Source: Streptomyces sp. NRRL S-118
GTDB lineage: Bacteria; Actinomycetota; Actinomycetes; Streptomycetales; Streptomycetaceae
Direction of reading: 5' to 3'
Length of the DNA: 64,000 nucleotides
Assembly: GCF_000716335.1 (NCBI RefSeq)
Contig: NZ_KL591016.1
Coordinates: 39,222 to 103,221 of the forward strand
Shown: piece after piece, positions 48,690-51,539 of the stretch
Layout: the number at the start of each line of letters is the position of its first letter
How positions within the stretch are numbered: position 1 is the first letter of the stretch
Made by a program: the position numbers and the translations under genes
Notes under the pieces: generated by a model
Databases searched by the model: none
What the model was told of the DNA's origin: nothing
Seen by the model: only the letters and a program-made list of their open reading frames with translations

Positions 48690-49175
48690 TCAGTCCGGGG
48701 CGTGCGTGCGGAGGCGCTCGACCTGGGCGGCGCTGACGTCGACGGTGCGCCGCATGTGAGCGGTGAGAAACGCCACCTCCTCATCGGTGTACGCGTCGAA
48801 CATCTCGGCCCAGGGGCCGCCCACCCGCTCCCAGACCGCGGCGAACTCGGCCATCCGCTCGGGCACGGTGCTCACCAGCACCCGCCGCCGGTCGTGGACG
48901 TCGCGCTCGCGGGTGACGTACCCGGCCCGCTCCAGCCGGTCGACGAGTCGGGTGGCGGAGCCCGTGGTGAGCCCGGTCAGTTCGGCGATGCGCCCGGTGG
49001 TGACGGGCCCCTGCTCCAGGTCGAGCAGGTTCAGGCACTGCACGTCGGTGGGGTGCAGCCGCAGCCGGTCGGCGAGGGCCTGGTTGAAGAGGGCGTACGA
49101 GGCCATGTAGCGGCGGGACGCGCCGAACAGGTCGGCCATCAGCCCCGGACGTCGCCCCCGGTTCTCCTGCGGCAT
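48690..49175 (-). CDS. MarR family transcriptional regulator
   Basis: 161 residues. The winged helix reads PVTTGRIAELTGLTTGSATRLVDRLERAGYVTRERDVHDRRRVLVSTV, the typical MarR DNA-binding core with the DxRxxxxxxT wing. No catalytic or metal site. It is convergent with the Mut7-C gene. Targets are unknown; the small repeats upstream are not an obvious operator. Confidence 0.88.
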   Translation of the reverse strand: MPQENRGRRPGLMADLFGASRRYMASYALFNQALADRLRLHPTDVQCLNLLDLEQGPVTTGRIAELTGLTTGSATRLVDRLERAGYVTRERDVHDRRRVLVSTVPERMAEFAAVWERVGGPWAEMFDAYTDEEVAFLTAHMRRTVDVSAAQVERLRTHAPD

Positions 49176-49324: not shown

Positions 49325-49912
49325 TCAAGGCCGCTCCGCCGTGAGGTAGCGCTGCACGGTCGGCGCCAGCCAGGCGACGACCTCCTCACGGGACATCTCC
49401 ACCGCGGGCGGGAGCCTCAGCACATAGCGGGCCAGCGCCATGCCGAGTATCTGCGAGGCGACCAGGGCGGCGCGGCGGGGCGCGTCGGCCGGATCGGGGC
49501 AGACACCGGCCGCGATGGGCCCGAGCTGCGCCCTGAACACCCCGCGCATCCGCTCGGCCCCCGCGCTGTTGGTCACGCCGACCCGCAGCACGGCCGTCAG
49601 GACGTCGTCCTGCTCCCAGCGGTCGAGGAAGTGCGAGACGAGGACGGCGCCGATGTGCCGGGCGGGCAGCGCGCCGACCTCGGGGAGGCGCAGGTCGATG
49701 TCGGAGGCGGCGGCGAAGAGGCCCTCCTTGTTGCCGTAGTAGCGCATCACCATCGACGGGTCGATGCCGGCGTCGCGGGCGATGGCCCGGATCGTGGCCC
49801 GCTCGTATCCGTCCGCGGCGAACCGCTCGCGGGCGGCCTCGAGGATCGCGGCGCGGGTGGTGTCCGAGCGGCGCGGGGCACTCGGGGCGTCTGCGGCGGC
49901 TTCCGACATCAT
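49325..49912 (-). CDS. TetR family repressor of the divergent monooxygenase
   Basis: 195 residues. RAAILEAARERFAADGYERATIRAIARDAGIDPSMVMRYYGNKEGLF is the TetR helix-turn-helix. The C-terminal region (TNSAGAERMRGVFRAQLGPIAAG and SQILGMALARYVLRLPP) matches TetR_C-type ligand domains. ATG 49912 has no ribosome-binding site and lies seven bases after a TACAGT -10-like box, so the mRNA may be leaderless. Palindromic 14-bp repeats cover this promoter and that of the divergent monooxygenase, which is the likely target. Confidence 0.9.
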   Translation of the reverse strand: MMSEAAADAPSAPRRSDTTRAAILEAARERFAADGYERATIRAIARDAGIDPSMVMRYYGNKEGLFAAASDIDLRLPEVGALPARHIGAVLVSHFLDRWEQDDVLTAVLRVGVTNSAGAERMRGVFRAQLGPIAAGVCPDPADAPRRAALVASQILGMALARYVLRLPPAVEMSREEVVAWLAPTVQRYLTAERP

Positions 49913-49913
49913 G

Positions 49914-50011
49914 CCAACAACTGTAGGCCAACAAGCGTTGACAGGCCAGCGGCGCCGGGTCTACCTTTACCAACAAGCGTTGGCCAACAAGCGTTGACCA
50001 ACGGCTGTTGA
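49914..50011. promoter_or_regulatory. in-phase array of 14-bp palindromic repeats (TetR operators)
   Basis: CCAACAACTGTAGG (49914), CCAACAAGCGTTGA (49928), CCAACAAGCGTTGG (49970), CCAACAAGCGTTGA (49984) and CCAACGGCTGTTGA (49998) follow each other with a strict 14-bp step. The 28-bp gap between the second and third is two empty steps and holds the spacer and -10 box of the plus-strand promoter. CCAAC-N4-GTTGG is itself a dyad. Five copies would bind several dimers. Confidence 0.85.
49938..49967 (+). promoter_or_regulatory. promoter of the flavin monooxygenase
   Basis: TTGACA (49938-49943), 18 bp spacer, TACCTT (49962-49967): a good HrdB-type promoter. The -35 box overlaps the second 14-bp repeat, and the start point would fall in the third one, so binding of the repressor would block it. 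Confidence 0.75.
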
Positions 50012-50123
50012 CGCCGGCGGAGGACGACCGGCGGACGACGACCGACGGCCGGCACCCGGCCGTCGGCGTCCACCGCCGGTCGTCCCACCGCTGTCCACCT
50101 GCACGAACACCACAGGAGCAGCC

Positions 50124-51539
50124 ATGAATGGCAAGCCGGGTACGGAGTTCGATGTCGTCGTCGTGGGCGCGGGCCCCACGGGAATGCTGCTCGCCGGCGA
50201 CCTCGCCGCCGCGGGCCTGAACGTCACGGTCGTGGAGCGCCGTCCGCGGGAGACGAGCAACCTGACGCGCGCCTTCGCCGTGCACGCCCGCACCCTGGAA
50301 CTGCTCGACGCCCGCGGCCTCGCGGACGAGCTGGTGGGGAGGGGCACGCCCGTCACCCGGCTGCGCCTGTTCGCCCGGCTGTCGCTCGACCTGTCACGGC
50401 TCCGCTCCCGCTTCCCGTTCCTGCTGATCACCCCGCAGTACGAAGTGGAGCGGCTGCTGGAGCGCCGCGCCGCCGAGGCCGGCGTGACCTTCCGGTACGG
50501 CACGGAAGTGCGCGGCCTCCACCAGGACGCCGCGACGGTCACCGCCGAGGTCACCGGCCCGGACGGCGCCCCCGCCGAGCTCCGCGCCCGCTACCTCGTG
50601 GGGGCGGACGGCGTACGGAGCACCGTCCGCCGCAGCCTGGGTCTGCCCTTTCCCGGTCGGGCGGTCATCCGTTCCATCGTCCTCGCCGACGTCCGTCTCG
50701 CGGAGGAACCGGAGAACCTGCTCACGGTGGACGGCCGGGGCGGCGCCTTCTCCTTCATCGCCCCCTTCGGCGACGGCTGGTTCCGCGTCATGGGCTGGGA
50801 CCGCGACCGCCAGGCCGCCGACAGCGAACCCGTCGGCCTCGACGAGATCCGCGGCATCGCCCGCCGCGCCCTCGGCTCCGACTACGGCATGCACGACGCC
50901 CGCTGGATCTCCCGGTTCCACAGCGACGAGCGCCAGGTCCCCGCCTACCGCACGGGCCGCGTCTTCCTCGCCGGGGACGCCGCGCACGTCCACTCGCCCG
51001 CGGGCGGCCAGGGCATGAACACCGGTCTGCAGGACGCCGCCAACCTCTCCTGGAAGCTCGCCGCCGTCCTGCGCGGCCGGGCCTCCGACCCGGAGGCGCT
51101 GCTCGACAGCTACCACTCCGAGCGCCACCCCGTCGGCGCGATGGTGCTGCGCAGCAGCGGCGCGATCATCCGCATCGCCATGGCGCACCACCCGCTCCTG
51201 CGGGCCGCCCGCGCCCTGGGGGCCGCGATTTTCGACGCGACACCCCCGGCGACCACCAGGGCGGTGGGCCTGATCAGCGGCATCGGCATCTCCTACGGCG
51301 CCGGGCGCGGCTCCCACCGCCTCACCGGCCGGCGCGCACCCGATCTGGCACTGTCCGAGGGCCGGCTGTACGAACTGCTGCGCCGGCAGGCCTTCGTACT
51401 CGTCGGTCCCCGGTCCGGCGCCGCTGCGGACACCCCCGCCACGCCCGGCACGGTCATACGGGCGACCTGGGCCGACCCGGCCCGCCGCGGCACCCTCCTG
51501 GTGCGCCCCGACGGATACATCGCCTGGGCCCGGGACTGA
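50124..51539 (+). CDS. FAD-dependent aromatic monooxygenase (group A)
   Basis: 471 residues. The GxGxxG motif is [17 protein letters not shown]; the DG motif is [18 protein letters not shown]; the GD motif is [36 protein letters not shown]. This is the UbiH/PHBH superfamily as in polyketide hydroxylases and rifampicin or tetracycline monooxygenases, with a shortened thioredoxin-like C-terminus. It probably hydroxylates or inactivates an aromatic antibiotic or xenobiotic that relieves the TetR repressor. ATG 50124 follows AGGAG by about six bases. Confidence 0.9.

What the first reader, a model, noticed from the sequence alone, without database searches (positions are those of the whole stretch)
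49914..50011. Seven-step, 14-bp in-phase operator array in a divergent TetR / flavin monooxygenase promoter
Five copies of CCAACNNNNGTTGR-type sites sit on an exact 14-bp grid. Two steps in the middle (49942-49969) are free of the motif and carry the spacer and -10 box of the monooxygenase promoter. The left copies cover the putative leaderless tetR start, and the right three cover the monooxygenase start point. TetR operators normally come as one or two sites; a periodic array suggests cooperative multi-dimer coating and a sharp switch.
Basis: seen in the sequence. Interest (0 to 1): 0.75.

Follow-up and report, generated by a model that had tools for sequence, protein, structure and literature searches.

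The report
Tandem repressor sites at monooxygenase promoter
In Streptomyces, a repressor gene and a neighbouring oxygenase gene share a control region tiled with five copies of one 14-letter palindrome, and the tiling recurs in related bacteria, which makes it a good test case for how several repressor molecules together switch genes.

Summary
Five CCAACNNNNGTTGR-type palindromes start at 49914, 49928, 49970, 49984 and 49998; they are the window's only sites with at least 9 of 10 letters.

The tiling is conserved. In 80 regions (window plus 79 TetR-relative loci), 196 of 197 within-cluster steps are exactly 14 bp. A protein-blind search for the tandem pair led to a homologue of this TetR at 51 of 53 places inspected, in four actinobacterial families. 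The sites are very probably this TetR's operators.

The "seven-step grid" needs correcting: two tiled clusters are anchored to promoter hexamers. The distance across the gap is 41-45 bp and mostly follows the -35/-10 spacer. Op2's GTTGA supplies the monooxygenase -35 (73 of 73); op1's GTAGG (66 of 70) supplies a tetR -10, with the start codon 1 nt away in 72 of 79. Six loci without the monooxygenase keep only op1 and op2.

Best explanation: repression of both genes by several TetR dimers. Binding and cooperativity are inferred, not tested. New variant of a known kind.

The parts
49325..49912 (-). tetR: TetR-family regulator, 195 aa, the probable binder and autorepressor
   Evidence: ORF; Pfam TetR_N and TetR_C_16 over cut-off; TetR fold in the AlphaFold model
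50124..51539 (+). FAD monooxygenase, 471 aa, the probable target
   Evidence: ORF; Pfam FAD_binding_3 and Rng_hyd_C; nearest solved chain by sequence is 5kow, rifampin monooxygenase
49914..49927 (.). op1 CCAACAACTGTAGG; its right half carries the tetR -10
   Evidence: GTAGG in 66 of 70 op1 copies
49928..49941 (.). op2 CCAACAAGCGTTGA; its right half carries TTGA of the monooxygenase -35
   Evidence: GTTGA in 73 of 73 op2 copies
49970..49983 (.). op3 CCAACAAGCGTTGG, perfect palindrome, over the predicted monooxygenase start point
49984..49997 (.). op4 CCAACAAGCGTTGA
49998..50011 (.). op5 CCAACGGCTGTTGA
   Evidence: an op5 in 42 of 73 regions
49937..49942 (+). monooxygenase -35 TTGACA
   Evidence: sequence; conserved in orthologues
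49961..49966 (+). monooxygenase -10 TACCTT, spacer 18
49973..49973 (+). predicted monooxygenase transcription start (about plus or minus 2)
   Evidence: inference from the -10 position; not mapped
49920..49925 (-). tetR -10 TACAGT, written inside op1
   Evidence: TANNNT at this place in 74 of 79 regions
49912..49912 (-). predicted leaderless tetR transcription start at the A of its ATG (about plus or minus 1)
   Evidence: inference from the -10; start codon 1 nt beyond op1 in 72 of 79
49943..49948 (-). weak candidate tetR -35 (CTGGCC); a CCAG/CCAT element is frequent here in orthologues
   Evidence: inference from sequences printed

Best explanation
The array is the operator region of the adjacent TetR-family protein, which represses its own gene and the divergent FAD monooxygenase. 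Each 14-bp palindrome most likely takes one dimer. Units abut without spacer, so neighbouring dimers sit about 120 degrees apart and wind round the DNA, probably helping each other to bind. Op1 covers the tetR -10 and abuts its start codon; op2 covers the monooxygenase -35; op3 covers its start point; op4 and op5 lie in the early transcribed region and extend the block. A small molecule, probably a substrate of the monooxygenase, would release the dimers and switch both genes on. Shown here: the sites, their conservation, their fusion with promoter hexamers, their tie to this TetR clade. Inferred: binding, one dimer per unit, cooperativity, repression, inducer.
For: 196 of 197 within-cluster steps are 14 bp in protein-selected regions, and 350 sites were seen against a shuffled mean of 17.2. 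Blind tandem-pair hits lie beside a homologue of this TetR at 51 of 53 places inspected, reversed control 0. Recognition-helix stretch IDPSMVMRY nearly invariant in 137 homologues. Operators fused with hexamers: GTTGA in 73 of 73 op2, GTAGG in 66 of 70 op1; gap tracks spacer. Six loci without the monooxygenase keep op1 and op2 only. Half-sites 9 bp apart (about 31 A) fit the 31-32.2 A of TetR and SimR (PMC4150764, passages).
Against: No binding data. L086 has an eight-site array without a TetR homologue in its 3-kb locus, and L090 has one beside a monooxygenase without tetR. Homologues near 50% identity differ: L092, L109, L132, L140 have arrays, L153 and L157 do not, though L153 shares the recognition helix. 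Slippage duplication could also yield contiguous units. DarR, with a 5-N4-5 palindrome, binds as a dimer of dimers (PMC10636190, passages).
Confidence: 0.68

Rival explanations
1. Independent operators: the same TetR binds each site on its own. The tiling arose by 14-bp slippage duplication and only raises occupancy; there is no special cooperativity.
For: Copy number varies (2 to 8 sites per region) and right-hand units are added or lost between relatives.
Against: Of 197 within-cluster steps one is not 14 bp; in 57 further loci, partly selected by a 14-bp pair, 174 of 176 steps near 14 are 14, while the gap varies from 41 to 45 bp. Unconstrained junctions should drift.
Confidence: 0.17
2. 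Dimer of dimers: pairs of dimers share overlapping sites, as in QacR, CprB or DarR, so five palindromes would carry more than five dimers or dimers centred on the GTTGR|CCAAC junctions.
For: DarR binds ATACT-N4-AGTAT, also 5-N4-5, with two touching dimers (PMC10636190, passages). CprB and QacR bind as dimers of dimers (PMC4150764, passages).
Against: Outer half-sites are conserved (op1 CCAAC 90-100% per letter, op3 CCAAC 93-100%), so the unit is the whole palindrome and not the junction. Half-site distance of 9 bp fits the single-dimer class better.
Confidence: 0.12
3. RNA element: CCAAC...GTTGG repeats form tandem hairpins in the monooxygenase leader and act after transcription.
For: Op4 and op5 are transcribed if the predicted start is right, and the window's leader is strongly structured further down.
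Against: Op1 and op2 lie outside both predicted transcripts yet are the sites kept when the monooxygenase is lost.
Confidence: 0.02
4. Another regulator binds the array, for example the MarR-family protein encoded next to tetR.
For: It is encoded at 48690-49175, just downstream of tetR.
Against: Blind site hits track this TetR's homologues in four families. MarR presence was not tested there.
Confidence: 0.02

Closest known systems
SCO7222/SCO7223 of S. coelicolor (PMC3511530, passages)
   Same: TetR-family gene divergent from a monooxygenase gene; three operators bound by the protein in the shared region, two nearer the regulator gene and one nearer the target.
   Different: Operator TGGAACGNCGTTCCA, three sites in three discrete protected regions; not reported there as an abutting array.
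ActR of S. coelicolor (PMC3511530, passages)
   Same: Divergent regulator with three putative operators and three shifted complexes.
   Different: Target is an MFS transporter; the palindromes are weaker and unlike this motif.
TetR/tetO
   Same: Divergent repressor with palindromic operators between its own gene and its target.
   Different: Two separate 15-bp operators (PMC3511530, passages), against clusters of two and three abutting units here.
DarR (PMC10636190, passages)
   Same: TetR-family repressor with a 5-N4-5 palindrome, ATACT-N4-AGTAT.
   Different: Other half-site; a 20-bp operator bound by a dimer of dimers with direct contacts; no tiled array in the passages seen.
QacR, CprB, CgmR, SlmA (PMC4150764, passages)
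   Same: TetR-family proteins that put more than one dimer on one stretch of DNA.
   Different: Two dimers on one operator of 22-32 bp (QacR, CgmR, CprB), not whole palindromes repeated at 14 bp.

Membership tests
TetR-family transcriptional regulator | TetR_N DNA-binding domain and all-helical TetR fold | tested here: met
TetR-family transcriptional regulator | palindromic operators beside its own gene | tested here: met
   five palindromes next to tetR, tied to its homologues
TetR-family transcriptional regulator | binds these operators and is released by a ligand | not testable with these tools
   needs EMSA, footprint and ligand assays
TetR/tetO two-operator arrangement | two operators between the divergent genes | tested here: not met
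   five sites, 2+3; in 73 of the 80 regions 3 or more sites at 8 or more of 10 letters
SCO7222-type operators | TGGAACGNCGTTCCA repeats | tested here: not met
   the units here read CCAAC-N4-GTTGR; motif of SCO7222 from PMC3511530
Dimer-of-dimers binders (QacR, CprB, DarR) | two dimers per operator | not testable with these tools
   stoichiometry cannot be read from sequence
Rifampin monooxygenase (NCBIfam NF033145) | score over the curated cut-off | tested here: not met
   357.4 bits against a cut-off of 800; a related enzyme, not shown to be a member

The most novel reading that the evidence does not exclude
A TetR-family protein that builds an ordered helical coat on DNA: dimers tile 14-bp units with no gap, three dimers per 42 bp (four turns). 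The number of units, 4 or 5 in most of the orthologous regions and up to 8, would be an evolvable dial for the steepness of induction, and the coat is interrupted only where RNA polymerase needs the promoter spacer and -10.
Probability: 0.33. Interest if true: 0.78.

Novelty: new variant of a known kind. Interest (0 to 1): 0.57.

Why it matters
A TetR-family operator made of abutting whole palindromes, kept at 14 bp in four actinobacterial families while the target enzyme, gap and leader change, is a natural series for asking how the number of repressors sets the sharpness of a switch. Operator letters double as -35 and -10 boxes, so repression is built into the promoter. The motif also lets the clade's targets be found by DNA pattern alone. 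If dimers do tile cooperatively, it would be a compact, tunable repressor part for Streptomyces.

Tried and rejected
Chance: rejected. Continuous grid through the promoter: rejected, the gap mostly follows the promoter spacer. Helical in-phase stacking of neighbouring sites: rejected on arithmetic, 120 degrees per step. Large regulon: no support; outside the array the genome has two single strict sites, at control level; both stretches were fetched and looked at, no gene assignment pursued. General property of TetR_C_16 proteins: not supported; the one other such protein found in this genome has no site of 8 or more letters in its locus. Junction-centred unit: disfavoured by conserved outer half-sites. 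RNA element: disfavoured (rivals).

Literature: ten searches of an open-licence library showed no report of this array, motif or locus in their listings. One search was swamped by words that begin with 'tetr', one search gave mostly unrelated papers, searches gave none. Most subscription papers are not held, so absence from print is not shown. Passages only were seen of PMC3511530, PMC10636190 and PMC4150764; all other papers as listings.

Limits: orthologues are related, so counts are not independent events. Only the best 80 of 359 relatives were kept. Of the places listed, 30 were fetched. From I counted 23 new places, leaving out L129 (the window), L138 and L139 (same arrays as L120 and L104) and L092, L104, L108 (already counted). 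One search includes loci selected by a 14-bp pair, so its 14-bp count is biased; one search is protein-selected. L063 has no upstream DNA and was left out; L075 has no site upstream of tetR and was thus left out. Start codons of L044 and L054 could not be assigned. The names YnfA and cold-shock protein are recalled, from no call.

Full report
WHAT IS THERE. Between tetR (49325-49912, minus) and a FAD monooxygenase gene (50124-51539, plus) lie five 14-bp palindromes of the form CCAAC-N4-GTTGR: op1 49914, op2 49928, op3 49970, op4 49984, op5 49998. Within each of the two clusters the units abut with no spacer. They are the only five sites in the window with at least 9 of 10 defined letters; 20 Markov-1 simulations of the window gave 0-3 such sites each and no 14-bp pair. 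The 7.9-Mb genome has six strictly matching sites, four of them here; the reversed control pattern gives four hits. Looser matches are below control level, so strict matches and their clustering are the signal.

CONSERVATION IN ORTHOLOGUES. A protein-based search kept the best 80 of 359 loci with TetR relatives, 79 titled Streptomyces and one Actinacidiphila. For the window plus 79 of them (L063 has no upstream DNA), 350 sites of at least 8 of 10 letters were found, against 17.2 on average in base-shuffled sequence. Consecutive spacings were 14 bp (196), 15 (1), 41 (7), 42 (63), 43 (2), 45 (1) and 69 (1). Sites per region were 0 (1 region), 2 (6), 3 (2), 4 (29), 5 (38), 6 (3) and 8 (1). In the 73 regions with a gap the left cluster has 2 units in 67, 1 in 3 and 3 in 3; the right cluster has 3 in 40, 2 in 30, and 1, 4 and 5 in one each. 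The eight-site array is L082.

OPERATORS FUSED TO PROMOTERS. Op2 ends in GTTGA in 73 of 73 regions and supplies TTGA of a TTGAC -35. A TANNNT hexamer follows at 17-19 bp in 68 of 73. Spacer and op2-op3 distance move together: 42 bp with spacer 18 in 58 and 41 with 17 in 6; the rest are one each of 45/18, 42/17, 43/19 and 43/17, and five without TANNNT. Op3 therefore mostly starts 2 bp after the -10. In 17 loci of three other families the distance is 43 or 44 bp in 16 and 41 in 1. There 43/17 occurs in 6 and 44/18 in 5 (op3 4 bp after the -10), with one 44/17 and one 41/17; the four f17 loci show no TANNNT. Six paralogous loci of the window's genus were also looked at: five have 41 bp, one has no pair, and only one of the five has TANNNT at 17-18 bp. 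So the clusters are anchored to the promoter, and the window's clean seven-step grid follows from an 18-bp spacer. On the other side op1 reads GTAGG instead of GTTGG in 66 of 70 copies. That letter makes a -10 on the minus strand (TANNNT in 74 of 79), and tetR's start codon lies 1 nt beyond op1 in 72 of 79, which predicts a leaderless tetR mRNA. In f19 loci the start codon is not placed like this.

THE SITES BELONG TO THIS TETR. The tandem pair CCAACNNNNGTTGRCCAACNNNNGTTGR, searched without reference to any protein, occurs in 106 of 295 genomes of the window's genus and in 26 of 394 genomes across the class, in 7 of 137 genera and four families, 13 of the 26 outside the genus; the reversed control shows 0 in the listed rows of both. 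Of 53 distinct places that I inspected (30, 23 more), 51 have a homologue of this TetR beside the array, at about 49-90% identity. The exceptions are L086, an eight-site array between two convergent predicted ORFs, and L090, an array beside a monooxygenase with a cold-shock-like gene where tetR is expected; both genomes have a close homologue elsewhere, for L090 apparently at a contig end. Conversely, in family f19, 11 of 22 genomes have a TetR homologue at E 1e-40 or better by protein search, and 10 of the 11 loci have three or more sites; six of the ten are arrays already met in the blind search. Among 137 aligned homologues the stretch IDPSMVMRY of the recognition helix is nearly invariant; the genome's other TetR_C_16 protein reads VDAALVHHY and has no site in its locus. 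Against a simple rule: near 50% identity some homologues have arrays (L092, L109, L132, L140) and some do not (L153, L157), and three at 40-41% do not (L158-L160); L153 has the same helix.

NATURAL LOSS OF THE TARGET. The monooxygenase is the divergent neighbour in 72 of 80 loci. In L075 a different one (40% identity) lies co-directionally, with the array between it and tetR; L063 is cut; six loci have none. Those six (L011, L034, L039, L043, L044, L051) have just two sites, op1 and op2, and a YnfA-like gene, which in the window lies beyond the monooxygenase, stands within about 0.7 kb of tetR. This looks like loss of the target with its -10 and op3-op5, leaving tetR's own control. The six may descend from one event, so I count them as one line of evidence. 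Outside the genus the array is kept while the FAD monooxygenase beside most of the blind-hit arrays is a different one (37-41% identity).

KNOWN OR NEW. Divergent TetR-family autorepressors are a known kind, and ActR and SCO7222, the latter beside a monooxygenase, have three operators (PMC3511530, passages). I found no description of whole palindromes abutting in clusters of two to five, in an open-licence library only (searches listed under tried and rejected). I call it a new variant of a known kind. Inducer and substrate are unknown; the enzyme is related to rifampin monooxygenases but far below that family's cut-off.

Noticed in passing
window 50012-50123: The monooxygenase leader holds a very GC-rich hairpin (-75 kcal/mol for 112 nt; arms 50022-50040 and 50067-50085). 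Of the six nearest relatives printed, L005 and L008 have other long GC-rich leaders, the others shorter ones.
   Followed up: partly
L086:1487-1626: Eight sites on the 14-bp grid between two convergent predicted ORFs, with no homologue of this TetR in the 3-kb locus; a relic, a decoy or an independent repeat.
   Followed up: partly
L090:1501-1571: Array and monooxygenase without adjacent tetR; a cold-shock-like gene follows, and tetR lies elsewhere in the genome, apparently at a contig end. Possible rearrangement or assembly fault.
   Followed up: partly
L097:1743-2069 and L111:1641-1724: Second sets of sites at 14-bp steps between the promoter array and tetR, with a few missing steps.
   Followed up: no
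L075:3581-3663: tetR is co-directional with a different monooxygenase; the 2+2 array stays at the monooxygenase promoter.
   Followed up: partly
window 48690-49175: A MarR-family regulator gene lies just downstream of tetR on the same strand.
   Followed up: no
window 50014-50041: Two near-identical 14-bp repeats (CCGGCGGAGGACGA) follow op5 but 2 bp off the grid and unlike the operator.
   Followed up: no
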